This document shows, one piece after another, positions 11,016 to 55,745 of a DNA stretch of 64,000 nt (within the stretch, counting starts at the first letter, position 1; every line of letters starts with the position of its first letter). Both the position numbers and the translations under genes were made by a program. Below the pieces are notes generated by a model. It saw nothing but the letters and a program-made list of their open reading frames with translations, ran no database searches and was not told the DNA's origin. Source of the DNA: Nitrospira japonica (GTDB lineage: Bacteria > Nitrospirota > Nitrospiria > Nitrospirales > Nitrospiraceae); NCBI RefSeq assembly GCF_900169565.1, contig NZ_LT828648.1, forward strand, positions 2,110,876 to 2,174,875, given 5' to 3'.

Positions 11016-11029
11016 TTTGGTGGAGGGCA
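11016..11029 (+). repeat. Proposed left attachment core (attL)
   Basis: The 14 bases TTTGGTGGAGGGCA are identical to 26789-26802 and in the same orientation. They include the complement of the tRNA-Ala 3' end (CCA plus acceptor bases), so an excised chromosome would still have a complete tRNA. The codon phase is the same in both copies, which supports their being recombination cores. Confidence 0.7.
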
Positions 11030-11781: not shown

Positions 11782-12822
11782 TCAAGAGGGGATATCCATG
11801 ATGTGATGTGGAACAACGCTTGCGAATTCAGGGATTCCATTCTGCATGTCCCACACATGAAGATGGTGTTCATAGTCTATATCCCACCTAATGGCTTTAT
11901 CAGTGCCTCTCCGAACAGTACAACTTGCGCCGCCGCTGTCCCTTCGCAAGGCATGGGATTTCTGCAAATTGCGTCTGAGTAGGACATCTAAAATAGTACT
12001 CATTAATTTCTGGGTTTTACCTGTACTCGAAAGCACGCCAGAGTCTCGCACTGAAGTAAGAAATTCGTTTCCTATCCTAAACGGTGGCGTATCCTCCATG
12101 GTGGCCTTTAAACCTGCGCTAATCGATTCCTTCACCCAAGCGATTCTAATCGATCGTGCGACGCTTTCCTGATCAAAGGCGGTTGATATCAGTTCACATT
12201 CATCAAGTGCGCAAACCAAGGAGAGGTGGTCATCGCAGATGATGATGCTTTCCTTCAGAGAAAGTGGGGTATTTACATGGGTTGTTGCTGAAGTAAATTC
12301 GATCAAATCTATGTCTGCATGAACAGCGGCCTCGGAGACATTGTTTGGCCGAGTTGCCACCGCGAGGACATGATTCGAGCGGTTACGATCCAAATGTCTT
12401 AGATGTATTGAGAGAATAACTAATAATCTTGTTAGTTCATCGTGGAAAGGGTCGTTCGTCCCTGCTGAGTGAATCGGAGGTGTGCATTGAAACTTAGTCC
12501 ATGACGCATCTTGTATTCCCGTCTCGGCTTCCAATGCCATTGATTTGGTTAAAATAAATGTCACCACACTTGCTATATCGTTTATGGAATATTCCCGAAT
12601 TCCAAAACTCTGGAATGATTTACTTAGATCCTCACGATTCGGATAGGAATTTGATGCAGCAAGAACCTCGTGTGAGCGTAATGAAATGCAGAGAGCTACC
12701 CAGTTAGCATTTAGAATGCTGCTCCACTCCAAGAGCTTACGTAGATACTCTTCGAAGGAATTGCGACCCAAGAGAGGATCAGGCACGGCGAGCACGCCTG
12801 GATGCAACGTCACTCTAGGCAT
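11782..12822 (-). CDS. Unrecognised partner protein of the AAA ATPase
   Basis: A 346-residue protein I cannot assign. Start ATG 12822 overlaps the end of the ATPase gene by 8 bases, so the two are almost certainly co-translated. The N terminus, MPRVTLHPGVLAVPDPLL, opens a soluble alpha/beta protein with no signal peptide or membrane segment. The C terminus has a conspicuous motif-like stretch, HALRRDSGG, then TVRRGTDKAIRWDIDYEHHL and HVWDMQNGIPEFASVV. Clustered His, Asp and Arg residues there would suit a catalytic or nucleic-acid-binding site, but no known nuclease motif is clear. In two-gene ATPase modules of defence islands the second gene is often the effector; that role is inference. Confidence 0.75.
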   Translation of the reverse strand: MPRVTLHPGVLAVPDPLLGRNSFEEYLRKLLEWSSILNANWVALCISLRSHEVLAASNSYPNREDLSKSFQSFGIREYSINDIASVVTFILTKSMALEAETGIQDASWTKFQCTPPIHSAGTNDPFHDELTRLLVILSIHLRHLDRNRSNHVLAVATRPNNVSEAAVHADIDLIEFTSATTHVNTPLSLKESIIICDDHLSLVCALDECELISTAFDQESVARSIRIAWVKESISAGLKATMEDTPPFRIGNEFLTSVRDSGVLSSTGKTQKLMSTILDVLLRRNLQKSHALRRDSGGASCTVRRGTDKAIRWDIDYEHHLHVWDMQNGIPEFASVVPHHIMDIPS

Positions 12823-14692
12823 TCTTGCGGTCAATCCCGAGTCGCTTAGCCATTGCCGCGCGTAATATTTGCTCAGCTTCTCGAGGTGATTCGTCGAAGA
12901 AGCCGTGTGGCCAGTCATCAATGGCGCCGTACCTGTTGATACGAAGCTCACGATACTTCGACCGTCCCTCCTCGTTCTCAACAAAATAGACACGCATGAG
13001 GTTAGAGAGTTTGTCATCAGTGTCCACGGCGGCGCGGTATCTGAGCCTATTAATTAAATACTCGCTATGTGTTTCAACAATGCACTGTTTCTGAAGTAAC
13101 GCCATAGATAGCATGAAGTCCGCTAATAATGACTGGACCTTTGGATTGAGGTGAATTTCAGGTTGTTCAAAGACTAGAACCGATCCGCTGTCTGCCAAGA
13201 GTGACATGACAAGAATGGGGAGGACTTGACTAACACCTACACCCACATGAGAAAGGTTGTGAAGATCTTGGGCTCCTCCTGTCGCTACCTGAAGTTCATG
13301 GCCGAATATCCCTCGATCCCGGGTTCGAAACTGAGTTACGACGGTCAGATAGCTTAACCAGTCCTGGATAGCGTCTTTGAGAGCAGCAATCTTTGGTTCC
13401 ATTGCTGTCCCGGGTTTTTTGAAGCAAGAGGATGGGATGTAGCGAATAGGCGAGTTCTTGTAAAGATCAAGTACTGCCGCCGTGTGTTGTCCTTTCAATC
13501 CTACATCACTTGGGTCGGTAACACCTTCCATGGGATACACTGCTTTGGGCTCATCTCTAAGAGGTCCCAAATACTTGAATGCCTCTGAAAAGAGCATTCT
13601 GATCTGATGGTGTATTCCTGAAAGTTCCTCGCCAAGTGGGAAGGAAGTGAGAGTTCTATTCGCGGATGAATTGCCTTTCGAAAGCTGTATCAATTCCTCT
13701 TCGTGTGGTTCGACCAAGGCTCTAAATCGTCTCTGTCCAAAGTAGGAAATAGATTTGAGGAGATTGCTAGGTGTGAGTTCCTGATGAAGCTCCTGTAGTG
13801 AAGCCTCTAATCGCCTTGATCGGACTTCGGTCAAATCAGGAACTTTGAGCTGTGCTCCGCTATTTAGAATGTCTCTCAACTTCTCGAGAAATGGGATTGA
13901 GAGATATGGAGCATCATCTTCGTCGAAGGTCGCTGGTTCTTCTGATGAAAAGTTATTGACGATTTGCTTCGCATACTCTTCGACGCTGTCGTAAGCCATG
14001 GATAGGGATGTTGGTAAAAAATGTGAAAGATGTGCTCCAACAGCCTTGCTCCTTATTGGAAGTCTGAACCCAAATCGGCGAGATTTAAAGGACTTGGGCT
14101 CAACAACCTCGTATGCCAAAGCTATGAGTTCATTAGGAGGTACAGACTTAGAGTTCAGACCGAGTTCCTTTATGCGGTCTTCAATTGGCTTGTTAAGTCT
14201 TCTAAGTACAACGCTATTTGCTTCAGGAGCATCGGCTATTCGAGCGGACATCCTGCAGTATGTCAAGAGTGGTTGCAGTTGAAGTATCTCCTTTGACTCA
14301 TCCTTTGCTTCAGCGGAGAAAGCAAAGTCACAGTCAACGGTTGCGCCTGACAGTTCTGGCCGGCGAAGAATTCGTCTACCCTTGACGATCTCTCCCCTCC
14401 CCGTTACCCGTTGCTCAGTAAACTCTAAGGTGAACCCGATGGATATATCTTTCTTCCCACTATTGCTTGATGCAAGATCCTCAAAGGTCCCCAACCTAGT
14501 AATGTGACCATTCAGCACGATCGGTTTGGAGAATACTTGATTGTCGATTGTCTGTGTGACGAGAAGCATTGACTGAATAAATGTACTCTTGCCAGAGCTA
14601 TTTGCCCCGGCGAATACCGTCAAAGGAAGAAAGCTAAGTTCTGTTGGGTCATACACTGATTTGAAATTGTGCAGACGCCATTTTTGGATCAT
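12815..14692 (-). CDS. AAA15-family ATPase with DUF3696-like C terminus
   Basis: A 625-residue ABC/SMC-type ATPase. The N terminus reads WRLHNFKSVYDPTELSFLPL, followed by Walker A GANSSGKST at about residues 29-37. The C-terminal half has a signature-like region HVGVGVSQVLPI, Walker B VLVFEQPEIHLNP, the switch motif VETHSEYLINRL, and a WPHGFFDESPREAEQ ending typical of DUF3696 ATPases. The central region is helical. Start ATG 14692 is preceded by GAGG. The overlapping downstream gene makes a two-gene ATPase/partner unit. Such ATPases commonly act as sensors or regulators in antiphage modules, but no specific named system is recognised here. Confidence 0.85.
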   Translation of the reverse strand: MIQKWRLHNFKSVYDPTELSFLPLTVFAGANSSGKSTFIQSMLLVTQTIDNQVFSKPIVLNGHITRLGTFEDLASSNSGKKDISIGFTLEFTEQRVTGRGEIVKGRRILRRPELSGATVDCDFAFSAEAKDESKEILQLQPLLTYCRMSARIADAPEANSVVLRRLNKPIEDRIKELGLNSKSVPPNELIALAYEVVEPKSFKSRRFGFRLPIRSKAVGAHLSHFLPTSLSMAYDSVEEYAKQIVNNFSSEEPATFDEDDAPYLSIPFLEKLRDILNSGAQLKVPDLTEVRSRRLEASLQELHQELTPSNLLKSISYFGQRRFRALVEPHEEELIQLSKGNSSANRTLTSFPLGEELSGIHHQIRMLFSEAFKYLGPLRDEPKAVYPMEGVTDPSDVGLKGQHTAAVLDLYKNSPIRYIPSSCFKKPGTAMEPKIAALKDAIQDWLSYLTVVTQFRTRDRGIFGHELQVATGGAQDLHNLSHVGVGVSQVLPILVMSLLADSGSVLVFEQPEIHLNPKVQSLLADFMLSMALLQKQCIVETHSEYLINRLRYRAAVDTDDKLSNLMRVYFVENEEGRSKYRELRINRYGAIDDWPHGFFDESPREAEQILRAAMAKRLGIDRKNA

Positions 14693-14746
14693 CAAAAGCC
14701 TCGGGAGTTAAATGCTTTTGCCGTCAAGGATCGTGATAACACGTGG

Positions 14747-15433
14747 CTACGCTACCATACCAAAAGAGAGTGGGTAGGTCCACGGATTGGATTGCCTGGA
14801 AAGGCATGCCGATCGAAATGCTTCGCACATGGGACGTTTAAAAGGCTCGTGCGAGGGTTGCGAATTAATTGAAGCAGCTAAGATTTGGTGAGAAATTGAA
14901 TTGTGTCTTAACGGAACCAGGTCGGATTGGTTCAGTCTTTGCCCATGTCTTGTCTTACGATATATCCACGGTGGAGTCGGGCTTGGATCGATCCATAAGC
15001 CTTTTTTGGCATCACGTGCCTCTTGTTCCAGTCTTTGTAACTCCGAGTTTGCCGGGGAATATTTGCGATACCACCAGCACCACCCTTCCTTAACTAGTTT
15101 GTGATTGATATTCGTCCCATCGGTCAACATTACGTCGGCAAGAGTGCGTCCGTATCTGTCGACACCATACCTATCTAGAGTCACATCTTTACCGTAGATG
15201 AGTGTCGCGGCAGCCTGCTTTGCTTTCTTACCGTAGGCTTGTCCTCTCTCGGGACAATCAATCCCGATCAGGCGAATGCGCACGATACGGCGATCTTGTA
15301 GGACTTCGATTGTGTCACCGTCAATAATGCTCACCACTTTTGCCGAATTGTTTGCAGTAACAGAAGAGATAGCAAGTGTAGGCAGCAGGAAGGGGCAGGC
15401 GAGGAATAGGGATTTTAGGAAATTTAAAAACAT
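14747..15433 (-). CDS. Secreted thermonuclease-family (SNase-like) nuclease, unusual C-terminal tail
   Basis: An N-terminal signal peptide (FLACPFLLPTLAISSVTA) is followed by a staphylococcal-nuclease fold: VVSIIDGDTIEVL, RIRLIGIDCPERGQAYG with the catalytic Arg and Glu, and DRYGRTLADV with the second Arg. A paralogue at 55746 shares the core up to PPWxYRK. After that point this protein has about 60 residues of basic, Cys-containing sequence with no counterpart in the paralogue, so the tail may come from a recombination or frameshift. It lies 54 bases upstream of the ATPase gene on the same strand and could be co-transcribed with it. Confidence 0.85.
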   Translation of the reverse strand: MFLNFLKSLFLACPFLLPTLAISSVTANNSAKVVSIIDGDTIEVLQDRRIVRIRLIGIDCPERGQAYGKKAKQAAATLIYGKDVTLDRYGVDRYGRTLADVMLTDGTNINHKLVKEGWCWWYRKYSPANSELQRLEQEARDAKKGLWIDPSPTPPWIYRKTRHGQRLNQSDLVPLRHNSISHQILAASINSQPSHEPFKRPMCEAFRSACLSRQSNPWTYPLSFGMVA

Positions 15434-15590: not shown

Positions 15591-17018
15591 ATGGGGATAC
15601 GCCAGTGGCTTGTTGACCATCTCAATAAACCAAGAACCAACGTTGTTGCATCAATTCTAGAATTCCCAGCGATCGACATTGATGGAATGACTAAGAGACT
15701 GAATCTGAAAAGACTTGCAAAGGAAAAGGGAGAGCAGGGTATTCCCAGGCCGGATAATGAGACTTTCGATGCGACAGAACATTCCATTATCAGTGAGATT
15801 GAGACAGAGGGAAAAATACAATTTAACAAGTACCTTGAGCACCAAAAAACTTACGCTGAGAGGGCTGGAGATGCGAGTGCAAGTGGTCTCCTCATCAAGA
15901 TTAGCTCTGCAGCCGGGGACGCCATAACAAATTTCGAGCGTAAGACCCATGTCGGTACTGGGGATCTTTACGCGAGTAAGCGCGATGTTATGCAATCGGA
16001 CGCTGAGCTCACGACGTTCAAAAATCTTCATGCACTGACTCGCCCTCCTCACGATTTGGGATCACGTACCTACAAGATCGGGATTCTCATACTTATCCTG
16101 GCAATCGAGTCAGTTCTCAATGGCTTCTTTCTAGCGAAAGGGCATGAGTTCGGTCTAATTGGTGGAGTTTCTCAGGCTCTAATCATTGCAGGGATCAATG
16201 TATTCGGAGGAGCAGCCGTTGGAAGATTAGTCTTACCATGGCTCAATCATCGCAACTTGAATGCGCGAGCCGTGGCTACAGTCGCAACACTTGGCTACCT
16301 GTTTATTGATGTTGGGTTTAATCTAGCGGTTGCCCACTATAGAAATGCCGTTGCCACGGATCCCTTTGAGGCCTCCGCAGTAGCCTACCGTTCTCTCCTC
16401 GCAGACCCATTAGGGCTGAATGACTTGCAGTCCTGGCTCTTGTTCTTGGTCGGATTCTTATTTTCAAACGTGGCACTCTACGATGGTTTTCGTATGGATG
16501 ATCCGTACCCCGGATATGGCCGACGTATGAGGCAAAACCTTCAAGCTTTGGACGATTACAACGATCTCAAGGAGCAGTTGCTTGGTGAGTTAGATGAGAT
16601 AAAGACGTCGGCCGAAGAAGAAATTGACGAAACCGTTCGAGATATTGGAACGAAGCAAGGAGAATTTGACTATATCGTCCGAAAAAGTCAGGCGTTACGG
16701 ACGAATATGCTTCAACATTTCATGCATCTTGGACTGGCCGGGAATACATTGCTGAGATTTTATCGCGAAGAGAACATGCGACATCGTCCTGCACATTCGC
16801 CTTCACCTGCTCGATTTAATCAACAATGGAAATACGAGCCACCCCCTCTAGCCGGCGAAGATGTGTCACCAGCAGATCCGGAGGTTTCCAGAAGTGTGAG
16901 TGTGCAGGCTTTGGAGGAGGCTAAGAAGCAGAGGGAAGCGTTACACAACAACTATCGTAAAGCGTGTGACGAGTATAAGCGCATTGATGACCTGGTGGAG
17001 CCTTCGACAGTGCTATGA
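15591..17018 (+). CDS. Four-helix membrane protein, first gene of a motor-like operon
   Basis: A 475-residue protein I recognise only as a conserved companion of MotA/MotB-like genes. About 155 cytoplasmic, mostly helical residues (beginning GIRQWLVDHLNKPRTNVV) precede four predicted membrane segments near residues 160-183, 187-212, 228-248 and 279-298. A charged coiled coil follows from about 320 to 400, then a Pro-rich linker and a second short coiled coil. No enzymatic motif is visible. The stop overlaps the next start by 4 bases. It probably assembles with the three downstream envelope proteins. Confidence 0.8.
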   Translation: MGIRQWLVDHLNKPRTNVVASILEFPAIDIDGMTKRLNLKRLAKEKGEQGIPRPDNETFDATEHSIISEIETEGKIQFNKYLEHQKTYAERAGDASASGLLIKISSAAGDAITNFERKTHVGTGDLYASKRDVMQSDAELTTFKNLHALTRPPHDLGSRTYKIGILILILAIESVLNGFFLAKGHEFGLIGGVSQALIIAGINVFGGAAVGRLVLPWLNHRNLNARAVATVATLGYLFIDVGFNLAVAHYRNAVATDPFEASAVAYRSLLADPLGLNDLQSWLLFLVGFLFSNVALYDGFRMDDPYPGYGRRMRQNLQALDDYNDLKEQLLGELDEIKTSAEEEIDETVRDIGTKQGEFDYIVRKSQALRTNMLQHFMHLGLAGNTLLRFYREENMRHRPAHSPSPARFNQQWKYEPPPLAGEDVSPADPEVSRSVSVQALEEAKKQREALHNNYRKACDEYKRIDDLVEPSTVL

Positions 17019-17836
17019 GGCGCCACTCGAAACGTAGCACCCGGCAGGATAAGAACCGGTTGTTGGGATGGGTCTATGGTGGGATAGGAGTTGTCATCAT
17101 CTGCGGAATCATCACCGCCGCCGTGCTCCTAAATCTTCACAGGAAGGAAACGGACCCCGTCACAGGCTGTCCGAAGGACGGTTACGAAAGCATTACATCT
17201 GTTCTTGTTGACCTTACAGACCCAATCAACCCCGTTCAGGAGGCTGCGCTTCAAAATGCGCTTCTCAAAGTGCGTGATGAAGTTCCAAAGTATGGCCGAC
17301 TTGAAATCTATCCCTTGAAACCCACCATAACTACAGCAATAGAGCCGCTGTTCTTCGGGTGCAGCCCTGGCAGTGGACGTGACGAAGATAACGGGTTTTA
17401 TGGGAACCCTGAGCTAGCAAATCGCCGTTGGAAGCGGATGTTCGCGGACAAAGTTGATGCGGTAATTAACGAACTGCAGAAACTCCCACCGCAGCAGAAT
17501 TCGCCACTTCTTGAGGGCCTGCAATCTGTGGCTGTCACCTCATTGGGATCGCCTCTCGCCGCAAATGCCTCCACAAAACGGATTCTTCTTCTTTCTGACA
17601 TGATTCATCACACTCCAGAATTATCGATGTACAAAGGGGCTCCTGACTTTGTGCAGTTTAAGAGCACGCAGTACTACCCAAGAATTAAGCCGACCTTGCG
17701 TGGTGCTCAAGTCGATGTCTTCCTTATTGTTCGCGACACGCAAAAGCATGTGCAGCAGCCTCCTTTGTATAAGTTTTGGGTCGAATTTATGAACGCGAGC
17801 GGAGGGTTTCTTCAAAACTGGGAACCGCTCCAATAG
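17015..17836 (+). CDS. Membrane-anchored vWA-like periplasmic protein of the motor operon
   Basis: A basic N terminus is followed by one membrane helix (about residues 18-41) and a periplasmic domain of roughly 225 residues. That domain has a von Willebrand A-like start, SVLVDLTDPINPVQ (about 62-75), resembling a partly conserved metal-ion-dependent adhesion site, and a central strand RILLLSDMIHH with a second Asp. Two Cys residues (GCPKDG and FGCSPGS) could form a disulfide. It overlaps the previous gene (ATGA). A vWA sensor or adhesion module attached to a proton-channel pair is not part of the Zorya types I know. Function is unknown. Confidence 0.78.
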   Translation: MRRHSKRSTRQDKNRLLGWVYGGIGVVIICGIITAAVLLNLHRKETDPVTGCPKDGYESITSVLVDLTDPINPVQEAALQNALLKVRDEVPKYGRLEIYPLKPTITTAIEPLFFGCSPGSGRDEDNGFYGNPELANRRWKRMFADKVDAVINELQKLPPQQNSPLLEGLQSVAVTSLGSPLAANASTKRILLLSDMIHHTPELSMYKGAPDFVQFKSTQYYPRIKPTLRGAQVDVFLIVRDTQKHVQQPPLYKFWVEFMNASGGFLQNWEPLQ

Positions 17837-17848
17837 GTATTGACAATA

Positions 17849-19051
17849 ATGGATACACCGGCTGGCAAACGTAGATATCTCAATCCCCTTGGGGATGCGC
17901 AAGACCAGTACCTGTTTTTTGGCCTTTTCATTGTGGGGGCTGTCGGGATATGGATTTTGAAATGGAGCGGCTACAGTCAGCTAATTGTAACACTCTTTCC
18001 CGTCTCCCTGATGCTCATCTACTGCATAATTGCACTAGCTACCAAGCAGTACAGAATTAGGGAAGATCGAGCAGGTGACAATGTTTATTATCTCGGCTTT
18101 CTCTTTACATTAGTCTCGCTGGCGTTTGCCCTCCACGACTATCGACTTGATGGGTCTGGTGTCGAGTACATCCTTAAAGACTTTGGAATCGCAATCTTCA
18201 CGACTATTTTCGGCCTTGCTGGGCGGGTGTTCTTCAGTCAGATGCGCGAGGATCCAGTGGAGTATGAGCGAGAAGCGCGCTATGCCTTGTCGGAAGCAAG
18301 CAGTGCGATGCGCACACAGCTCGGTGATATTTCAACGGATGTTTCGAGCTTTAAGCGCAAACTCGTTCAGATAGTGGAAGAAGGTGTGGTGGATATTACA
18401 AATAGCGCGAATGCAGCCATGACAGAAACCGTCGAGAAGCACTCAGCTGCGAGCATCGAAATAGTCAAGTCTGTCAGGGAAACATTTCAAACATTTGTAG
18501 ACCATTCGACTGAACTCAACGACGCTGCCGCTAAAAATGTCAAAGCCCTACAATCGCTATTCAAACGCATAGAAAAAATCGAAGCTCCTTCCGATATGGT
18601 GGTTGCGAAATTCGATTCCGTCTTAGCAAAGTTTGAAGAGGTCGCGGCTGAAGCATTGAAAAGCAGTCGGACTGAAGCTGGCCAGGTGTCACGGCTACGC
18701 GATTCTATAGATGCGGTGGTCGGGGCAGCGGAAACCATCAAAAAATCATCAGAGCTATACGAGACGGCTATGTCTCAAAGAATTGATAAGCTTAAGACGG
18801 CCATAGAGGTGCTGGTGGAAACCGTCGCATCAATTCAGGTTTCTTCGCTCGGACTAACAAAGGGCCTCGAAGAACACCAGACCGTTATGTCTCAGAGTCG
18901 CTCGCTCATCGAAGATGATCTAAGAGTTGTGCGCAAACATCGGGATTCAATCACCCAGATCGAAGGTGAAAGTAGACAGTCGCTCCAGCAGCTGGAAGCA
19001 TCGCTAGTATCTCTCTGCAAGACCCTTGTGGAGCAGCTAGGTGGAAAATAG
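17849..19051 (+). CDS. ZorA/MotA/ExbB-like stator protein with long coiled-coil tail
   Basis: About 400 residues. Four membrane helices lie near residues 21-38, 43-65, 79-96 (NVYYLGFLFTLVSLAFAL) and 110-130 (DFGIAIFTTIFGLAGRVFF); the last two have the small-residue, Thr-rich pattern of the MotA/TolQ/ExbB proton channel. Everything after residue 140 is predicted helical coiled coil running into the cytoplasm, as in the long ZorA tail. Start ATG 17849 is chosen over TTG 17840. It overlaps the MotB-like gene by 11 bases. Zorya ZorA/ZorB motors drive antiphage activity, but no ZorC, ZorD or ZorE partner occurs here. Confidence 0.8.
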   Translation: MDTPAGKRRYLNPLGDAQDQYLFFGLFIVGAVGIWILKWSGYSQLIVTLFPVSLMLIYCIIALATKQYRIREDRAGDNVYYLGFLFTLVSLAFALHDYRLDGSGVEYILKDFGIAIFTTIFGLAGRVFFSQMREDPVEYEREARYALSEASSAMRTQLGDISTDVSSFKRKLVQIVEEGVVDITNSANAAMTETVEKHSAASIEIVKSVRETFQTFVDHSTELNDAAAKNVKALQSLFKRIEKIEAPSDMVVAKFDSVLAKFEEVAAEALKSSRTEAGQVSRLRDSIDAVVGAAETIKKSSELYETAMSQRIDKLKTAIEVLVETVASIQVSSLGLTKGLEEHQTVMSQSRSLIEDDLRVVRKHRDSITQIEGESRQSLQQLEASLVSLCKTLVEQLGGK

Positions 19052-19901
19052 AACCCGGAGAGTATTCACTCAGGATAGTGCTCATCGTCGTGGTCTAGTC
19101 CTGGGCCTAACAATGGCCGAAATTATGGTGCTCACTTTGTTCATTCTGTTGCTCATCGTTGCGGTAGCCCTGGAGCGACACAGAAAGGAACTCGAACGAA
19201 ACGCAGACACCATTAACAAGCAGCGTCAGGAGATCAAGAATCTTCTAGTCTTCCAAAAGGTGGTTACTGACAACCCGAATGGTGTTGTCGTCAAAGATAT
19301 CGTGCAACAACTCTCGCGCCAGAAGGAAGACATCGCTCGCCTTGAGGCCGAGGCGCAACAACGTTCACCAACGGAATCCAGCGTCAGAGCGTTTGAGACA
19401 CTTGTCTCGGCTCTGACCAAAGAATCAAATGGTAAGGCAACGGATCAACAGATCAGGGACAAAATCAAAGAGACATCAGCAGTGATGAAAGAAAGTGAAA
19501 CTCTGAAAGGACAGATCGCTCAACTCAGAAGTCAAATTAAAGCATCTGGACGAGGAAACGAATTTCCGAGTTGCTGGGTTACTACTCCAGAAGGAAAGAT
19601 CGAAAGTATATTTGAGTTGCTTATGAGCGAGACCGGCATACGGATTATTGAACGACCGCTCCCTCACCGAGCTGAAGACAAGGCGAAACTTCCCTTGTCG
19701 GCGATTCGGTACAATACCGAGTATCCACGTTATGAATTTGAAGCCTTGATGCGACCGCTTTATGAGTGGAGCGTAGCCCATGAATGCCGTTTTTACGTAA
19801 TCACGGCATCATCCGAACTTAGTGCCCCCATTTCTCTTGTGAACGCCATAAATGGATACTTTTATCCCGATGGAAAGATTCACCTGCGCACAGGTGCCTG
19901 A
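19041..19901 (+). CDS. ZorB/MotB-like stator partner with periplasmic domain
   Basis: A short cytoplasmic arm, one membrane helix (about residues 19-44, LGLTMAEIMVLTLFILLL), a coiled coil to about residue 170, and a C-terminal domain starting FPSCWVTTPEGKIES. Glu27 sits where MotB, ExbD and ZorB carry their proton-binding Asp, a noticeable substitution. The C-terminal domain does not show the OmpA-like peptidoglycan-binding motif of MotB; it has two Cys (PSCW and HECRFYV) that may pair. The start is GTG 19041 with GGAG 7 bases upstream. The gene overlaps its partner and the following small gene. Confidence 0.78.
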   Translation: MENRTRRVFTQDSAHRRGLVLGLTMAEIMVLTLFILLLIVAVALERHRKELERNADTINKQRQEIKNLLVFQKVVTDNPNGVVVKDIVQQLSRQKEDIARLEAEAQQRSPTESSVRAFETLVSALTKESNGKATDQQIRDKIKETSAVMKESETLKGQIAQLRSQIKASGRGNEFPSCWVTTPEGKIESIFELLMSETGIRIIERPLPHRAEDKAKLPLSAIRYNTEYPRYEFEALMRPLYEWSVAHECRFYVITASSELSAPISLVNAINGYFYPDGKIHLRTGA

Positions 19902-20089
19902 TGGAGACTCTCGAATTTGCCATCCTTGAGCTGCGCGTCCGCGCTCTGTATCACATTGCACGTTTAAAGGGATTAAAGACTACTGCTGGTTCCATACGAT
20001 TGCTTGCATCTGAGTTGTCTGATTCCGAGATCATGTCGATAATACAGAGAAAGAATGCGAAATGGTGGAATCTCTATTACTGGGGATGA
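19901..20089 (+). CDS. Small protein ending the motor operon
   Basis: A 62-residue protein whose ATG shares one base with the preceding stop, so it is coupled to the motor genes. It is predicted helical and soluble (LEFAILELRVRALYHIARLK), ends in aromatic residues (KWWNLYYWG), and has no Cys or signal peptide. I do not recognise it. Overlap and order support expression; coding status rests mainly on that context. Confidence 0.55.
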   Translation: METLEFAILELRVRALYHIARLKGLKTTAGSIRLLASELSDSEIMSIIQRKNAKWWNLYYWG

Positions 20090-20268: not shown

Positions 20269-20532
20269 ATGGCAAAAATTCAAGGACATCGCAAGACATC
20301 CGTTAGCCGCCTGAAAGACTTAGAGTCTGACAGGCATGCTTTCTTCTTATCCCAAAAACTTGCCAGTCATCCGTCTGCTATTCGTGAGGTCGATGCGCCC
20401 TTAGTGCGTCGAAGCAGCCCCCATCTGGCATTGGTCAAACTTCTCGCCGAAATTGCAGTCGCGTCCTACCTAGAGAAGTCAAATCCTTCAAGTGCAGCCA
20501 ACAACCAACTAGAGGTCAAAAATGGAGATTGA
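20269..20532 (+). CDS. Small hypothetical protein of the phage-like module
   Basis: An 87-residue basic protein, MAKIQGHRKTSVSRLKDLES onward, with a helical C-terminal half (HLALVKLLAEIAVASYLEK). An AAGGG ribosome site precedes ATG 20269, and the stop lies inside the next gene, indicating coupling. No family is recognised. It opens a run of genes leading to the terminase, so an accessory phage role is likely. Confidence 0.5.
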   Translation: MAKIQGHRKTSVSRLKDLESDRHAFFLSQKLASHPSAIREVDAPLVRRSSPHLALVKLLAEIAVASYLEKSNPSSAANNQLEVKNGD

Positions 20533-20920
20533 TTGGCCTGAGGGTCCACCTACTGAAGTAGATCTTCCGGCGGGCACTTACGTCGCGTCTTACAAGGGTT
20601 ATGCTCATCGGAACATGTTCCGACAGTCAAAGATCCAACTGAATTTCAAGATTGTTGCGCCCTCTGAGTCAGCTGGTATCGAGGTATCGCTTTTCGCCAC
20701 CTTTCCCTTACAAGGCAAACCTCCCCATCGGTCAAAGTATTTTGAACTTTGGAGTAAGGCCAATGGTAGGCCTCCGATACGTGGGCAACGCATGTCAGCA
20801 GGCATCTTCGAGGGTTATTGGAATGTCCGTATCGAGTGGAGCAAACCCAGGAATGGAGGGCCAGGAATGCCGATCATTGTTGAACTTATTAGTCGAGAGG
20901 CTGGAGGACCACGTCGATGA
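20522..20920 (+). CDS. Phage-type conserved hypothetical protein
   Basis: A 132-residue, beta-rich protein: VDLPAGTYVASYKGYAHRNM, FRQSKIQLNFKIV, and a C-terminal MPIIVELISREAG. This layout resembles a small conserved protein found in prophage and island replication/packaging regions; I cannot name a function. AGAGG lies 7 bases before ATG 20522. It overlaps both neighbours, consistent with a polycistronic phage early or packaging region. Confidence 0.6.
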   Translation: MEIDWPEGPPTEVDLPAGTYVASYKGYAHRNMFRQSKIQLNFKIVAPSESAGIEVSLFATFPLQGKPPHRSKYFELWSKANGRPPIRGQRMSAGIFEGYWNVRIEWSKPRNGGPGMPIIVELISREAGGPRR

Positions 20921-21381
20921 TTTCAAGCTTCGTGCTTCCTGACTCTGATGATATGCCATTTTCTCATGGCAATCAGCAACTTATCCCACCGAAACCTAGG
21001 GCGGGTAGGGTTAGGAAAGTTTTAGGGAGGGAAAGAAAGAGGAATAGAAATGGAATGCGAGGGAATAAGCGAAGGTTCAATCGATGTTACCAGCGTTCGC
21101 GGATCAACCAAAAACCCGCGACGGCCCTACGTGGGGCAATAACTCACGTCCAGGTGACCCCCTACGATCTTCGCGATCGTCGGGGGTCTCTTCGGTCCAA
21201 CGAATCGGGCAGCATCTGGCTTTTGCCTCAAAATATTTGTGCGCAACCAGTTCAAGAATCATTGATTCTTGTTGATGCGGAATCTCGGGGTCCCGTGTTT
21301 CTCGTAGACATTCGTCACCCTTTCAATCTGAATTCGACGGAGGAAAGATGGCAGGACAAGCCGGACGAAGTGGCCCAATAG
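20917..21381 (+). CDS. Doubtful ORF between phage genes
   Basis: The frame has a good start context (GGAGGA 8 bases before an ATGA overlap) and encodes 154 residues. The composition is odd: a very basic centre (RVRKVLGRERKRNRNGMRGN) and no family resemblance. It runs through a strong hairpin (21156-21188) and overlaps the start of the small terminase gene by 34 bases. An HNH endonuclease often sits here in phage, but no HNH motif is seen. It may be a basic DNA-binding protein or only partly coding. Confidence 0.3.
   Translation: MISSFVLPDSDDMPFSHGNQQLIPPKPRAGRVRKVLGRERKRNRNGMRGNKRRFNRCYQRSRINQKPATALRGAITHVQVTPYDLRDRRGSLRSNESGSIWLLPQNICAQPVQESLILVDAESRGPVFLVDIRHPFNLNSTEERWQDKPDEVAQ
21156..21188. 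terminator. Strong hairpin upstream of terminase genes
   Basis: The arms GACCCCC-T-ACGATC and GATCGT-C-GGGGGTC form 13 base pairs with one internal mismatch around a TTCGC loop. No T-tract follows, so it may be a pausing, processing or packaging-related structure rather than a canonical intrinsic terminator. Confidence 0.4.
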
Positions 21382-21773
21382 GAAATCTGAATGCAGCCAG
21401 ACACCCGTGGCGCAGCTTCTGGCGTCGTCGCGCACTACGCCCAAGCGAGAAGTGGATACTGCCGACCCTTGAGCGATACAGCGGTGGTCTTGCCTCAGAC
21501 AAACCAAACCTGAGCGAAGCTGAAGCACGAATAATCGAAATAGCTCAGACAGCTCGAGGCGCGACGATGTTAATTTTGGCCGAGTGTGCGCGGTCAGGAT
21601 TCATAGTTAAAGAAGACGGCTCCTGGAATCTCGCGCCAGGAGCACGAGAATTGGGTCGGTTTCTGGCTATCGAACGGCAGGCCCTTCAGACTCTTGGGTT
21701 AGACCGTCGAGCTAAACCGACAGGTCGGTCCCTCGCCGAACTCCTGACCGCCCCAACCAAGGAGTCAGCATGA
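21348..21773 (+). CDS. Phage terminase small subunit-like protein
   Basis: A 141-residue protein whose N terminus (GPIGNLNAARHPWRSFWRRR) and following helices, including SEAEARIIEIAQTARGATML and ELGRFLAIERQALQTLGL, resemble the small terminase proteins that precede TerL in temperate phages. Such proteins bind the phage DNA packaging site and regulate the large subunit. GGAGG is 5 bases upstream of ATG 21348. The stop overlaps the terL start (ATGA). I identify it by resemblance and position; no recognition helix is diagnostic by eye. Confidence 0.7.
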   Translation: MAGQAGRSGPIGNLNAARHPWRSFWRRRALRPSEKWILPTLERYSGGLASDKPNLSEAEARIIEIAQTARGATMLILAECARSGFIVKEDGSWNLAPGARELGRFLAIERQALQTLGLDRRAKPTGRSLAELLTAPTKESA

Positions 21774-23218
21774 TTGGCGCACCGAGCAGAATTGCAGCCT
21801 GTGCTGGACAGGTGTCGCCGATGCAATTCTTCTCACTACTTTCTTGGCTGGATGGTAGGCCACTTCTCGATGTGATGGAGACGTACCGTCAGCAAATCCT
21901 AACTGAGGCACTGTTCTCCGTTCGACCAGATGGACGGCCGCAGTTCAAACGAATCCTTACTGGCCGTGCGAAGAAGAATGGCAAGACGGCAGATGCTGTG
22001 ATGGCGGCTCTGTACAAGTTGTTGGTTTGGGTGCCAGCCGGAAATGCTGGAAATCAGTGCTTTTTCGTAGCTTCGGATCTTGGACAAGCCAATGATGACC
22101 TGGATTTGGCTAAGAAAATAATTCGCTGTAATCCAATTCTCGAATCCGAATTGAATGTGATGAGAAACATTGTCGAGCGTCGGGACGGCAAAGGATTCCT
22201 GCAAATTCTTCCAGCCGGTGATGCGCCAGGGCTGCATGGCAAAACCTATCTTTTCCTAGTAGTTGATGAACTCCACACCCAGAGCGACTATCGACTGCTA
22301 GAAGCGTTGGAACTGGATCGTACTCGACCCGATGCCGTGCAATGGTTCGCAAGCTATGCGGCGATTTCGACACAATCGGGAATACCCATCAATGACATGC
22401 TTCGCCAATACCACAAAGGGACCGATCCTCGACTATTTGTCAGTTGGTTCTCTGGATCTATCGAAGAGGCAAACCCGTCCCTAAATGGCCCCTTGGGTCC
22501 CACCTTGCCTGACATTGAAGACGCCCAAAGGTCCCTGCCCTCATGGATCTTCCGCCGCCTGTATTTGAATCTTCCAGGACAGCCTGACGGTGCGGCCTTT
22601 GATGCGGGAGGAATTGATGCGGCGGTAATCCCAGGACGTATTGTGTTGCCACCTCAACTGGGTATCAAGTACATGGCCTTTGCTGATTTGAGCGGTGGCG
22701 GAGCCGACGACGCAACACTGGCCATTGCTCATGCGCAGGACGGACGGGCCATTCTTGACTTGCTCATCGACCAAGGACCACGAACCAATGGCACTTTCTC
22801 GCCGGAGAATGCCGTCACACTGTTCTCATCGGTGCTCAAACAATACGGCTGTACCGTGGTGATCGGGGACCGATACGCAGCCCAGTGGCCCATTCAAGCG
22901 TTTGCGAAGTGCGGAATTCAGTACCGCCCTGCGCAACAGACCCGTAGCCAGCTCTATGCCAATTTGGAACCCTTGCTGAATAGTGGACGGATCGAACTCC
23001 TCGACCAGTCCAAGTTGATCGGACAACTGATCGGACTCGTGCGCAAGGGGGAGAAGATCGACCATTCTATTGGTCAACACGACGACTGGGCGAACGCGGC
23101 AACCGGCGTACTGGTTTCCGCCGCGACGTTACCGAAGACAGTTTCGAAAGAATCCATCGAGGGCTGGATAGAATCATGCTCAAGATTGTCTAAGTCCCGA
23201 TGGCGACCAGGCGATTGA
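21770..23218 (+). CDS. Phage terminase large subunit
   Basis: The packaging motor and nuclease. The N-terminal ATPase has a deviant Walker A, GRAKKNGKT (about residues 65-73), and Walker B LFLVVDELH (about 162-169). The C-terminal RNase H-like nuclease shows all three acidic positions: MAFADLSGGGADDATLA, VVIGDRYAAQWP and HDDWANAATG. At 482 residues it is full-length and probably active. AAGGAG precedes the ATG. Despite an apparently intact terminase, portal, protease and capsid genes are not found, suggesting a satellite that packages into a helper's capsid or a deletion derivative. Confidence 0.88.
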   Translation: MIGAPSRIAACAGQVSPMQFFSLLSWLDGRPLLDVMETYRQQILTEALFSVRPDGRPQFKRILTGRAKKNGKTADAVMAALYKLLVWVPAGNAGNQCFFVASDLGQANDDLDLAKKIIRCNPILESELNVMRNIVERRDGKGFLQILPAGDAPGLHGKTYLFLVVDELHTQSDYRLLEALELDRTRPDAVQWFASYAAISTQSGIPINDMLRQYHKGTDPRLFVSWFSGSIEEANPSLNGPLGPTLPDIEDAQRSLPSWIFRRLYLNLPGQPDGAAFDAGGIDAAVIPGRIVLPPQLGIKYMAFADLSGGGADDATLAIAHAQDGRAILDLLIDQGPRTNGTFSPENAVTLFSSVLKQYGCTVVIGDRYAAQWPIQAFAKCGIQYRPAQQTRSQLYANLEPLLNSGRIELLDQSKLIGQLIGLVRKGEKIDHSIGQHDDWANAATGVLVSAATLPKTVSKESIEGWIESCSRLSKSRWRPGD

Positions 23219-23244
23219 TGCCCTGTAAGAAAGGAGAGCTGACC

Positions 23245-23904
23245 ATGGCCACATCGACTGCTACAACGGCTGAGGAAATCGAGCGACAACTCAAGGCATT
23301 GACCGAGCAACGACCAAAACTTGAGGCGCAGTTAGGTGCCGCTCGGCAAGCACTGACGTCGGAAGAGGATCGGCACCAAACGCTGCTTGCGGCTGCTTTG
23401 ATTGACGGAACTACAGAAACAAACACCACCGTAAACGACGCGGAGGATGCGGTCTCAGTGGCGCATAGAAAGGTTCGCACGCTTGTCCGCTCCTTGGAGA
23501 CACTGGATCGTGAGCTCGTACGACTCGAAAGAGAGTTCGTCAGGGCAAAGCAGGTTCTGGCGCGGGCAGCGTTGCATCAAGAGGCTCGGCGACACCAAGA
23601 GCTAGGTCGCGAGCTTGACCGACGGCTGGCTGAGGTGGGTGAGATTCTCTCTCAGTGGATGGACTCGGCGATCCGTTGTTACCAGTGTCAGGCCGATGCA
23701 GGACGCTCTCCGGGACGAACCCCCAAATCTCGCTTTCGTGAGGCCTGGCTGTCCTTTGGAAGCAAGTATGGACGGCCTGTGCTCGACGGCCCACTGATTC
23801 CAGGGGGATTCGAATGTCAGAGTTACTCAGCGCCAAGACCCGACCCTCAGACGGTAGTCTCCGCGCCGAATGTGAGTGACGTAACGCATGGGAGGGGGCA
23901 ATGA
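23245..23904 (+). CDS. Coiled-coil protein of the phage module
   Basis: A 219-residue protein starting at ATG 23245, selected because AAGGAG lies 8 bases before it. Residues from about 8 to 140 are strongly helical and charged (EIERQLKALTEQRPKLEAQL), with an Ala/Gln-rich heptad-like pattern; a Pro-rich tail follows. No enzymatic motif is visible. Its position after terL and before an XkdF-like gene would suit a scaffolding or head-associated protein, but this is positional inference. The stop overlaps the next start. Confidence 0.6.
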   Translation: MATSTATTAEEIERQLKALTEQRPKLEAQLGAARQALTSEEDRHQTLLAAALIDGTTETNTTVNDAEDAVSVAHRKVRTLVRSLETLDRELVRLEREFVRAKQVLARAALHQEARRHQELGRELDRRLAEVGEILSQWMDSAIRCYQCQADAGRSPGRTPKSRFREAWLSFGSKYGRPVLDGPLIPGGFECQSYSAPRPDPQTVVSAPNVSDVTHGRGQ

Positions 23905-24383
23905 ACATCTTACAGGACCTACGAGTGGATGAGGTGAGCCTTGTGAGCGAGGGGGCAAACAAGGGGGCACGAATCATTATCGTGAAGCGCAACGAAGAAT
24001 CCGACAGTCCTATGGCACCCGCGGACATCTTCACAAGAGACGAGTTGTTCGCATCCTTATGCGCAGTATTGAAGACGGAATACCCAAAACTGAATTTGCC
24101 CCAAGCCGTCGCGACCATGGCTAAGGAGTATCCCGATGAACTTCAGGCTTGGCGCGAGTGCCATAGAACGGCTCCTTTCGACAGAAGTGAGGTCCGCCTT
24201 AGGAATGTCGGGACATCGAGTCATAGTGCAATTGAAGAGTTCGAGCAGCGCGCTCAAAGTCTTGTGGCTCAGGGCGAAGTAGAAAATCTAGTAGATGCAG
24301 TTTGTCTAATCGCGCATAACGATCCGGACTTTTACGAAGTTTATGTTCAGGAAGTGCGGGGCGGTCAGACCCCATACCCCTAA
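23901..24383 (+). CDS. XkdF-like phage protein
   Basis: A 160-residue protein opening LRVDEVSLVSEGANKGARII, very like the VSLVDxGAN motif at the start of XkdF-type phage proteins, which are associated with head maturation or portal regions. The rest is helical and acidic (DELFASLCAVLKTEYPKLNL). It starts four bases inside the upstream gene with a GGGAGGGGG site. It is shorter than typical XkdF proteins, so it may be a reduced form. No protease triad is evident. Confidence 0.6.
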   Translation: MNILQDLRVDEVSLVSEGANKGARIIIVKRNEESDSPMAPADIFTRDELFASLCAVLKTEYPKLNLPQAVATMAKEYPDELQAWRECHRTAPFDRSEVRLRNVGTSSHSAIEEFEQRAQSLVAQGEVENLVDAVCLIAHNDPDFYEVYVQEVRGGQTPYP

Positions 24384-25126: not shown

Positions 25127-26812
25127 ATGACACGAGTTGCCTTGTACGCGCGCTATTCATCGGAAGGTCAGCGTGAGGCATCCATCGAGGACCAGTTTCG
25201 CAACTGCGAACAGTATTCGCAGCGGGAAAACCAATGGACTGTGATCTATCGCTATTTCGACAAGGCCATTTCAGGGGCTACGCACCATCGTGAGAGCTAT
25301 CAACAGATGCTGAAGGACGCCCAGGCAGCTTGTTTTGATGTCCTCCTCGTTGACGACTTATCTCGGCTGTCCCGTGACCAGGTTGAGACGGAAATGGTTC
25401 GACGACGCCTGGTTTACTGGGGCATACGACTGATTGGCGTTAGCGATGGCATCGATACGGCAAAAAGAGGCCATAAGGTAATCGCCAACTTCAAAGGGAT
25501 GATGAACGAGGTATTTCTCGACGATCTTCGAGACAAGACTCGCCGAGGAATGGTCGGACAGGTACTCAAAGGGTACCATGGTGGAGGGCGCATATTTGGC
25601 TATCGGCTTGTCCCACAATTACACCCTACCCAGCGAGACCCCTATGGTCAACCGATCCGCGTAGGCACACGGCTTGAGATTGACGAGGCCCAGGCCCGCT
25701 GGGTGAAATGGATTTTCGAACAGTACGCAGACGGTATGTCCCCAGTGAAAATAGTTGAGGAACTAAACCGTCGGAACGTACCCCCTCCTGGCATTGCATA
25801 CCGTCGCAGATCAACCAGGTCTCCCTCATGGTGTGCTAGTGCCCTTTACGGCAATGTGAAGTACGGCCTTGGGATGCTAAACAATCGTTTGTATAAAGGA
25901 GAAATGGTCTGGGGCAGGTCCCGTTGGGAAAAGGATCCAGACACTAAGAAAAAGCGCCGATTTCTCTGTGACGAAAGAGATTGGATCAAGCACAAAGACG
26001 AAAATTTGAGAATTGTAGACGACCAGCTATGGGAATGCGTAAAGCAACGGCAGGAATCCGTACATGATGCGAGTCTAGCTATTCGCGAAAAACTCCATGC
26101 AAATGCACGCACAGGCCGTGGACCCAAATACCTGTTCTCCGGTCTCCTGACTTGTGGCCAATGCGGCTATAGGTTTGTAATAATTGATCCGAGCCGGTAT
26201 GGGTGCTCCGGATGGAAGTATCGTGGTCTTTCAGTCTGCACCAATACCATCATGGCCTCGCGCAAACTTATCGAAAAGATCCTGTTGGAATCGATCAAGC
26301 ACGATCTCTTTACCCCAGAGCGAATTGCCGTATTTACGCGAGAGGCCAGTATGCTCTTGGCAAAGCGACAGCACGAGCAGAATTTAGTGCAGAATCGTCA
26401 ACCGGTGCGTCTTTCCCAGGTAGAGCAGGAAATCGAAAATCTACTAGCAGCTATAAAGGCAGGAATAGTTACACCGAGGACGAAGCATGAACTAGAAAAA
26501 GCTGAGGCCGAAAGGGAAGTGCTGATAAGGGCCAGCGAACTAGGGCGTCAGAGATCGGAGGAAATAGCATCCTTCCTGCCTAACGCGGTCGATCGATTCA
26601 AGACCCTTTTGGATGACCTTGCGGGTGCTTTGCAGGTGCATGTCGACAGGGCTCGGGGAATCCTTCGAGTGCTGCTTGGCGAAAAGATACTCCTGCATCC
26701 GACGTCAAACGGGGTAGAGCGGTTTTTGACTGCTGAAATCAGCGGGAATTACGCGGGGTTAGTGCGTTTGGCAACTGGAAAAAATAAGTTTGGTGGAGGG
26801 CAGGGGAGTTGA
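25127..26812 (+). CDS. Large serine recombinase (integrase) running into tRNA-Ala
   Basis: A 561-residue large serine recombinase. The catalytic domain has Ser11 in LYARYSSEGQREASIEDQF and DVLLVDDLSRLSRD; the recombinase domain follows, with GGGRIFGYRL and LNRRNVPPPG. A zinc ribbon is visible (LLTCGQCGYRF, then GCSGWKYRGLSVC), then a coiled coil near residues 420-470. GAGGTGA lies before the ATG. The last residues, FGGGQGS, are encoded by the attachment repeat and by the 3' half of tRNA-Ala on the other strand. In the excised circle the frame would instead continue into 11030-11102, so the present C terminus is a product of integration. Serine integrases more often target protein genes than tRNAs, which makes this site notable. 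Confidence 0.93.
   Translation: MTRVALYARYSSEGQREASIEDQFRNCEQYSQRENQWTVIYRYFDKAISGATHHRESYQQMLKDAQAACFDVLLVDDLSRLSRDQVETEMVRRRLVYWGIRLIGVSDGIDTAKRGHKVIANFKGMMNEVFLDDLRDKTRRGMVGQVLKGYHGGGRIFGYRLVPQLHPTQRDPYGQPIRVGTRLEIDEAQARWVKWIFEQYADGMSPVKIVEELNRRNVPPPGIAYRRRSTRSPSWCASALYGNVKYGLGMLNNRLYKGEMVWGRSRWEKDPDTKKKRRFLCDERDWIKHKDENLRIVDDQLWECVKQRQESVHDASLAIREKLHANARTGRGPKYLFSGLLTCGQCGYRFVIIDPSRYGCSGWKYRGLSVCTNTIMASRKLIEKILLESIKHDLFTPERIAVFTREASMLLAKRQHEQNLVQNRQPVRLSQVEQEIENLLAAIKAGIVTPRTKHELEKAEAEREVLIRASELGRQRSEEIASFLPNAVDRFKTLLDDLAGALQVHVDRARGILRVLLGEKILLHPTSNGVERFLTAEISGNYAGLVRLATGKNKFGGGQGS
26789..26802 (+). repeat. Proposed right attachment core (attR)
   Basis: Identical to 11016-11029. It overlaps codons 555-559 of the integrase and the complement of the last 12 bases of tRNA-Ala including CCA. 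Crossover here leaves the tRNA sequence unchanged. Confidence 0.7.
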
Positions 26813-55345: not shown

Positions 55346-55732
55346 ATGACTCCATGGCGCAGATGGATCAGCATCGGATACTTTGCATCGGCATTTATGG
55401 CTGTAATCTATGTACCGTGGGTTCAGCACGACACCTCTTACCAGTTTTACGAGTATGCCTTCATTTTTAATCCTCCTCAGTTCAGGGCAGAAATCGCGTA
55501 TGGCATTGTAATCCTGGAAATCCTTGCCATTAGTCTTGTGGCTTCGGCTCTATTTATCTTCGAAGATATTCTTGAGCCACGTGTTTCGCAGTGGATTGCC
55601 GAAGCTCAAAAACCCCCGCCCCCGCTGCGACCCCTTGATCCTCTCTGGGAGAAGAATTGGGAAAACGTTGGTCGCAGACTTGGGACCTTCTACCGTACGC
55701 TGCGACAGAAATCGCGGACTAAGCGGTCTTGA
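55346..55732 (+). CDS. Small membrane protein with two helices
   Basis: A 128-residue protein with membrane helices near residues 8-25 (ISIGYFASAFMAVIYVPW) and 50-72 (IAYGIVILEILAISLVASAL). A Pro-rich, basic cytoplasmic tail (EAQKPPPPLRPLDPLW) follows. No family is recognised. It lies between the PilZ and thermonuclease genes and may be co-transcribed with them. Confidence 0.7.
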   Translation: MTPWRRWISIGYFASAFMAVIYVPWVQHDTSYQFYEYAFIFNPPQFRAEIAYGIVILEILAISLVASALFIFEDILEPRVSQWIAEAQKPPPPLRPLDPLWEKNWENVGRRLGTFYRTLRQKSRTKRS

Positions 55733-55745
55733 TGCTGGTGCTCTT

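What the first reader, a model, noticed from the sequence alone, without database searches (positions are those of the whole stretch)
15591..20089. Five-gene membrane motor operon with a vWA-like protein: possible undescribed defence or envelope system
Seen: five genes with overlaps or tiny gaps encode a four-helix protein with a large cytoplasmic N-terminal region, a single-helix periplasmic vWA-like protein, a ZorA/MotA-like channel with a 260-residue coiled-coil tail, a ZorB/MotB-like partner, and a 62-residue protein. Known: Zorya uses ZorA/ZorB proton-driven motors plus ZorC/D or ZorE effectors against phage. None of those effectors is here, while a vWA-like sensor and an extra four-helix protein are. 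The operon sits in a tRNA-integrated element beside an ATPase pair. Inference: a motor-based system with a new sensor/effector arrangement.
Basis: partly seen in the sequence, partly recalled or inferred. Interest (0 to 1): 0.88.

Follow-up and report, generated by a model that had tools for sequence, protein, structure and literature searches.

The report
Membrane motor paired with periplasmic nuclease
A five-gene stretch in this bacterium encodes an ion-driven membrane motor of the flagellar/Zorya type plus two new membrane proteins, and across many other bacteria the same set sits next to, or is physically fused to, a DNA-cutting enzyme outside the inner membrane, suggesting an undescribed machine that cuts incoming DNA as it crosses the cell wall.

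Summary
The five ORFs exist as described. A signal-peptide SNase (thermonuclease) gene lies 157 bp away, divergently transcribed, and it belongs to the system. The ORF1-ORF2-ORF3-ORF4 order is conserved in 81 of 84 scored loci, mostly alphaproteobacterial. Of 51 dereplicated, untruncated loci, 31 have an SNase within 3 kb or fused, in five arrangements (about 0.3% per locus expected). In four loci the SNase is fused to the C-terminus of the MotB/ZorB-like subunit. In a fifth, a GmrSD-type HNH nuclease sits there instead. So the effector appears to be an exchangeable, exported nuclease carried on the periplasmic end of the motor. ORF2 is a vWA protein by predicted fold; ORF1 has no known relative. 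ORF3/ORF4 are remote relatives of ZorA/ZorB, with an invariant Glu (101/101) where MotB/ZorB have Asp. It is not Zorya: the Zorya effectors are absent. Best explanation: a PMF-driven trans-envelope motor that positions or activates a periplasmic nuclease against DNA entering the cell. Motor plus nuclease is well supported. The anti-phage role is inferred: distribution is patchy and on plasmids or integrated elements, but defence-gene enrichment is weak and no phenotype is known.

The parts
15591..17018 (+). ORF1, 475 aa: four TM helices between two long cytoplasmic helical regions; new family (invariant Glu173, Asn177, Asn244, His249, Arg251, Asp304)
   Evidence: No Pfam, PADLOC, NCBIfam or PDB sequence match; AF2 model pLDDT 89, all helical, no PDB fold match at E<=0.001; homologues in 34 aligned loci
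17015..17836 (+). ORF2, 273 aa: N-terminal TM anchor plus periplasmic vWA domain with MIDAS-like DxTD...S...D; invariant Cys52 and Cys116
   Evidence: AF2 pLDDT 89.5 and Foldseek vWA hits; conserved residues; homologues on 20 plasmids
17840..19051 (+). ORF3, 403 aa: A subunit of the motor (ZorA/MotA-like TM hairpin, invariant Thr90, Ser93, Thr122) plus coiled-coil tail
   Evidence: hhalign of the TM core with ZorA type II E=1.3e-4, better than 30/30 block shuffles; invariant columns
19041..19901 (+). ORF4, 286 aa: B subunit of the motor; TM with invariant Glu27 (LTMAE); here with a non-OmpA 'CW' C-terminal domain
   Evidence: Glu in 101/101 B subunits; relatives match PomB in the PDB and ZorB models; hhalign with ZorB E=3e-6
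14747..15433 (-). Exported SNase/thermonuclease with catalytic residues present (IDGDT, IRLIGIDCPE, DRYGR): proposed effector
   Evidence: Pfam SNase 4.8e-28; adjacency or fusion across relatives
19901..20089 (+). ORF5, 62 aa, overlapping the ORF4 stop; probably lineage-specific
   Evidence: no homologue in any related locus
12815..14695 (-). AAA_15/AAA_21/DUF3696 ATPase next to the SNase (candidate defence gene; could alternatively share an operon with the SNase)
   Evidence: Pfam AAA_15 3.2e-21; PADLOC NsnB 1.6e-69, HEC-03B 2.5e-53
25127..26812 (+). Large serine recombinase of the integrated element
   Evidence: Pfam Resolvase/Recombinase; phrog_95 integrase 6e-77
26789..26802 (+). Candidate attachment repeat TTTGGTGGAGGGCA at the tRNA-Ala 3' end; second copy at 11016-11029
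   Evidence: synteny with G006 breaks here

Best explanation
The operon encodes a 5:2-type ion-driven motor (ORF3 ring, ORF4 dimer) that spans inner membrane and periplasm. The working tool at its periplasmic end is a nuclease: usually a separate exported SNase, in some relatives an SNase or HNH domain fused to ORF4. The OmpA-like domain (most relatives) or the CW domain (window type) holds the B subunit to the cell wall or to another partner. The vWA protein is a periplasmic adaptor or sensor, and ORF1 links the motor to the cytoplasmic side. Most likely sequence of events (inferred): something piercing the envelope disturbs the cell-wall anchor or the vWA protein, ion flow turns or re-orients ORF4, and the nuclease is brought onto or unlocked for DNA passing through the periplasm, such as phage DNA being injected or plasmid DNA arriving. 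Shown here: conserved gene order, motor-like A and B subunits, an invariant ion-site acid (Glu), an exported nuclease with catalytic residues, and its adjacency or fusion. Inferred: rotation, triggering, the DNA target, and protection against phage.
For: The four-gene order is present in 81 of 84 loci scored. SNase lies within 3 kb or fused in 31 of 51 dereplicated, untruncated loci in five arrangements; one of the 31 (L116) is only a 78-aa remnant. Chance is about 0.3% per locus from 16 SNase genes in 36.3 Mb. On the ORF1 tree the arrangement changes at least 20 times. ORF4-SNase fusions occur in L115, L120, L121 and L142 (Pfam SNase in the three scanned, OmpA in between in L121 and L142). 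A TM-OmpA-HNH (GmrSD_C 2.3e-11) fusion occurs in L141. Of 28 stand-alone SNases, 23 have a hydrophobic export or anchor segment. Glu is invariant in 101/101 B subunits. The vWA fold is predicted with confidence. Distribution is patchy, with copies on conjugative or mobilizable plasmids and in a tRNA-integrated element. The S. fredii NXT3 plasmid has cassette, thermonuclease, a DUF4041 (SNIPE-type) gene and a CHAT gene in a row; SNIPE cuts phage DNA at injection (PMC13190303).
Against: Fifteen dereplicated cassettes with ORF3 (including the whole R. tropici-like clade, with constant flanks) have no SNase or other recognised nuclease in cis. The sampled genomes of that kind do carry SNase genes elsewhere, so the nuclease may act in trans or be dispensable. 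Flanking genes are only weakly enriched in defence families. In the window the SNase is divergent and could share a transcript with the AAA ATPase. No relative was found in 50,697 phage records, and there is no phenotype. A 5:2 assembly was not modelled.
Confidence: 0.55

Rival explanations
1. A scavenging or DNA-processing machine: the motor energises the envelope to bring in or process environmental DNA, and the periplasmic nuclease degrades it for phosphate or nucleotides (or prepares it for uptake).
For: Exported SNase, motor and a MIDAS-type vWA in one module; accessory location on large rhizobial plasmids.
Against: No outer-membrane receptor, TonB-like protein, pilus or permease gene recurs next to the cassette; a nuclease fused to a cell-wall-anchored B subunit is an odd design for import.
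Confidence: 0.17
2. A Zorya-like system in which ORF1 (large cytoplasmic helical regions) and the ORF3 tail act on a cytoplasmic effector encoded elsewhere, and the SNase is an accessory.
For: ORF3 and ORF4 are remote ZorA and ZorB relatives; ORF1 has about 150 and 170 cytoplasmic residues; many cassettes lack a cis SNase.
Against: No ZorC, ZorD, ZorE, ZorF or ZorG gene is seen beside the window cassette or recurs beside relatives; repeated nuclease fusions are on the periplasmic side.
Confidence: 0.14
3. An envelope-maintenance or force-transducing complex, like the vWA proteins next to TolQ-type motors, with the nuclease only clearing DNA from the cell wall.
For: vWA proteins beside 5:2 motors are predicted force transducers (PMC12204202); SH3_3 and DUF4236 genes recur nearby; the genus carries a related motor pair beside a lipase or a Sel1-repeat gene.
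Against: Very patchy distribution (4% of sampled alphaproteobacteria) and mobile context do not fit housekeeping; ORF2 has neither the SHLS motif nor a TM aspartate of those vWA families (by inspection).
Confidence: 0.14

Closest known systems
Zorya (ZorA/ZorB plus ZorC/D, ZorE or ZorF/G)
   Same: A/B motor pair with a ZorA-like TM hairpin, long A-subunit tail, OmpA-type B subunit in most relatives, and a nuclease as effector
   Different: Nuclease is exported/periplasmic and adjacent or fused to B; two extra membrane proteins (ORF1, vWA); Glu instead of Asp at the ion site; no Zorya effector genes
vWA force transducers next to TolQ/TolR-type motors (PMC12204202)
   Same: Membrane-anchored periplasmic vWA protein encoded beside a 5:2-type motor
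   Different: ORF2 lacks the SHLS motif and the pore-helix aspartate; a separate B subunit is present; a nuclease and ORF1 belong to the module
SNIPE (DUF4041 plus GIY-YIG; PMC13190303)
   Same: Membrane-linked nuclease proposed to meet DNA as it enters
   Different: No DUF4041 or GIY-YIG domain; the nuclease is exported; an ion-driven motor is present
MotAB / PomAB flagellar stators
   Same: A/B architecture, OmpA-like peptidoglycan-binding domain in B (PomB matches)
   Different: No torque-generating cytoplasmic domain; long coiled-coil tail; Glu for Asp; not with flagellar genes

Membership tests
Zorya | ZorA-like A subunit with TM core and long cytoplasmic tail | tested here: met
   hhalign E=1.3e-4 versus ZorA type II, best of 30 block shuffles 3.6e-3; remote, below NCBIfam ZorA cut-off
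Zorya | ZorB-like B subunit with ion-carrying Asp in its TM helix | tested here: not met
   Position is Glu in 101/101 members; ZorB has Asp (PMC11890865; sequences)
Zorya | OmpA-like peptidoglycan-binding domain in B | tested here: inconclusive
   Present in most relatives; absent from the window protein, L116, L117, L118
Zorya | Effector genes ZorC/D, ZorE or ZorF/G in the operon | tested here: not met
   None among the window neighbours or among recurrent neighbours of relatives
Zorya | Anti-phage activity | not testable with these tools
   Needs plaque assays
vWA force transducers of PMC12204202 | SHLS motor-binding motif, or pore helix with Asp, in the vWA protein's TM | tested here: not met
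   ORF2 TM (residues about 17-41) has neither, by inspection of the sequence
vWA fold | Rossmann-like vWA/I domain with MIDAS residues | tested here: met
   D66, D69, S163, D195 invariant
SNase (PF00565) | Profile match and catalytic residues | tested here: met
   (4.8e-28); motifs
SNIPE | DUF4041 plus GIY-YIG nuclease | tested here: not met
   No such domain in the window ORFs scanned
5:2 ion-driven motors | A5B2 assembly | not testable with these tools
   Only single-chain prediction offered; motor residues inferred from conservation

The most novel reading that the evidence does not exclude
The first rotary-motor system whose effector is a nuclease carried on the motor's periplasmic end, so that DNA is attacked outside the cytoplasm while it enters the cell. 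It would be a new kind of envelope-based immunity, with ORF1 a new protein family.
Probability: 0.4. Interest if true: 0.93.

Novelty: new variant of a known kind. Interest (0 to 1): 0.78.

Why it matters
Zorya is thought to sense envelope damage and recruit a nuclease in the cytoplasm; how the motor's motion is turned into nuclease action is unsettled. A family in which the nuclease is covalently part of the B subunit would make motor-to-nuclease coupling directly testable in one protein. It would also suggest that bacteria police DNA inside the periplasm. Two protein families (ORF1, and this vWA group), now annotated 'hypothetical' and without Pfam, NCBIfam or PADLOC models, would gain a context. 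The system is found on plasmids of nitrogen-fixing rhizobia, where it could shape phage resistance and plasmid exchange.

Tried and rejected
Single-protein scan of genome contigs with ORF3 (poor patterns, no hit) and tblastn of ORF4 on plasmids (no hit) were replaced by alignment-based searches. A1 was too divergent to scan with, so ORF3 core A5 was used. PDB sequence search with ORF3 gave mostly coiled-coil noise, as did the PADLOC ZorA matches, which for the window protein lie in the tail; so the TM core was compared with ZorA separately. ORF1 Foldseek gave no significant match. Defence enrichment of flanking genes was tested against random regions of the same kind of genomes and is weak, so it is not used as main evidence. 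Empty-site test: genus-mates confirm the right edge but not the left one, because glgB is not next to tRNA-Ala there. ORF1+ORF2-only loci (L122, L123, L143, L144, L125) were left out of the tree. The literature searches found no description of this operon, but bioRxiv itself is not held.
Full report
OBSERVATION. The five ORFs are present as described, with 1-11 bp overlaps or a 3 bp gap. Pfam and NCBIfam have no model for ORF1, ORF2 or ORF5, and only chance-level coiled-coil matches for ORF3 and ORF4. The search tools place the window in a 4.08 Mb single-contig genome. Hydrophobicity gives four TM segments in ORF1, one in ORF2 and one in ORF4; ORF3 has three above threshold plus a weaker fourth.

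RELATIVES. tblastn with ORF2 found 20 plasmids of Rhizobium, Sinorhizobium, Microvirga, Paracoccus and Tistrella. In all five opened, the same four genes follow one another, and in four a 'thermonuclease family protein' is adjacent. A scan of 84,980 genomes with the ORF3 core gave 210 relatives. The best 80 are alphaproteobacterial, plus three viral-collection contigs. Profile scans of their ORFs show ORF1-ORF2-ORF3-ORF4 complete, once each and in that order in 81 of 84 loci; the other three have a contig end or a split ORF2. Sampling drawn evenly from larger groups shows the system is rare and scattered: 16 of 385 alphaproteobacterial genomes, 12 of 398 Pseudomonadota, and 2 convincing of 296 in the window's own phylum (one further hit is short and weak). 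The closest relative of the window cassette, L116 with 54% identity in ORF1, lies in the alphaproteobacterial sample, so the window copy was probably acquired horizontally.

THE NUCLEASE. In the window an SNase gene with a hydrophobic N-terminus and the catalytic motifs lies 157 bp upstream, divergent. After dereplication at 85% ORF1 identity and removal of truncated loci, 31 of 51 loci have an SNase within 3 kb or fused (one of these, L116, is a 78-aa remnant). The arrangements are upstream same strand, upstream opposite, downstream same, downstream opposite, and fused. SNase genes occur at 16 per 36.3 Mb in six of these genomes, about 0.3% per locus by chance. Shared ancestry makes the binomial value optimistic, but the ORF1 tree needs at least 20 changes of arrangement and 13 changes of presence, so the association has been rebuilt many times. 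The decisive finding is fusion: in L115, L120, L121 and L142 the gene after ORF3 encodes an ORF4-type TM helix and a C-terminal SNase domain. Pfam confirms SNase in the three scanned (L115, L121, L142) and finds OmpA in between in L121 and L142; in L115 the OmpA-type motif is visible in sequence but below the Pfam threshold used. In L141 the SNase is replaced by a GmrSD_C (HNH) nuclease after the OmpA domain. Of 28 stand-alone SNases, 23 have a hydrophobic export or anchor segment. Since OmpA domains are periplasmic, the fused nucleases should be too.

THE MOTOR. The ORF3 core aligns with the ZorA type II hairpin at E=1.3e-4, against 3.6e-3 for the best of 30 block-shuffled controls. ORF4 aligns with ZorB at 3e-6 (one of 20 shuffles reached 6e-5), and relatives match PomB in the PDB. 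Thr90, Ser93 and Thr122 of ORF3 are invariant, in the places where motor A subunits present Ser/Thr to the B-subunit acid (PMC11890865). That acid is Glu in 101 of 101 B subunits here, while MotB and ZorB have Asp; this is a family signature. The window B subunit, and those of L116-L118, end in a different 'CW' domain instead of OmpA.

ORF1 AND ORF2. AlphaFold2 models are confident. ORF2 (pLDDT 89.5) is an N-terminal TM plus a vWA fold with MIDAS-like residues and two invariant cysteines. ORF1 (pLDDT 89) is all-helical: four TM helices between long helical regions, without a PDB counterpart.

CONTEXT. The window cassette lies beside an AAA ATPase matching candidate defence models and remnant phage genes (terminase, head protease), next to a large serine recombinase. 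Synteny with a genus-mate breaks exactly at the tRNA-Ala 3' end. A 14-bp copy of that end lies at 11016-11029, suggesting an element of about 15.8 kb; the left edge is unproven. Many relatives are on conjugative or mobilizable plasmids. The S. fredii NXT3 locus joins cassette, thermonuclease, a DUF4041 gene and a CHAT gene. Against a strong defence-island claim, PADLOC hits in flanking genes exceed random regions only modestly, and a Rhizobium tropici-like clade keeps the cassette, without SNase, at a fixed chromosomal site.

MECHANISM. Shown: gene order, motor-like A and B subunits, exported nuclease, fusion. Inferred: ion flow moves ORF4, and the nuclease acts on DNA in the periplasm. Defence against incoming DNA is preferred because a nuclease with no evident sequence specificity can only be safe where the cell's own DNA is absent, because the distribution is patchy and mobile, and because the nearest functional relative, Zorya, is anti-phage. 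Scavenging and envelope roles remain possible.

COMPARISON. It fails two Zorya criteria (ion-site Asp, effector genes) and so is not filed as Zorya, though it may work like it. It is not the vWA force-transducer family of PMC12204202 and not SNIPE (PMC13190303). The searched literature and family libraries hold no description of it (bioRxiv not searched).

Noticed in passing
L002 (own genome C1:3545290), L003: A second, divergent A/B motor pair in the same genome and in genus-mates, next to a class-3 lipase-like gene (L002) or a Sel1-repeat gene (L003); its B subunit has Gln (L002) or Glu (L003) at the ion site and a CW-type C-terminal region.
   Followed up: partly
L037, L041, L042, L045, L048, L053 and others: In Mesorhizobium-type loci a DUF4236 gene overlaps or follows ORF4 and looks co-operonic; in L047, L061 and L066 a DUF4236-SH3 gene lies a few kb away. 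A stand-alone SH3 gene recurs too.
   Followed up: partly
L122, L123, L125, L143, L144: Loci with ORF1 and ORF2 homologues but no recognised ORF3/ORF4: possibly an older two-protein module used without this motor.
   Followed up: no
L019:5387-6475: An HsdR-N-domain protein (Pfam HSDR_N 1.1e-11) lies 75 bp upstream of ORF1 in a cassette without SNase; possibly another nuclease partner.
   Followed up: no
window 55524-56285 (+): A second SNase gene, far from the cassette.
   Followed up: no
window 11782-14695 (-): AAA ATPase (DUF3696) plus an overlapping 411-aa protein without any family match: a candidate two-gene defence pair; the ATPase gene is 52 bp from the SNase stop, so they may share a transcript.
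   Followed up: partly
window 20269-24383 (+): Remnant phage packaging genes (terminase large subunit, head-protease-like) between the cassette and the recombinase: a decayed prophage or satellite.
   Followed up: partly
L149 (G006): The same tRNA-Ala in a genus-mate carries unrelated sequence with a weak translated match to the serine recombinase on the other side of the same break point: possibly an integration hotspot.
   Followed up: no
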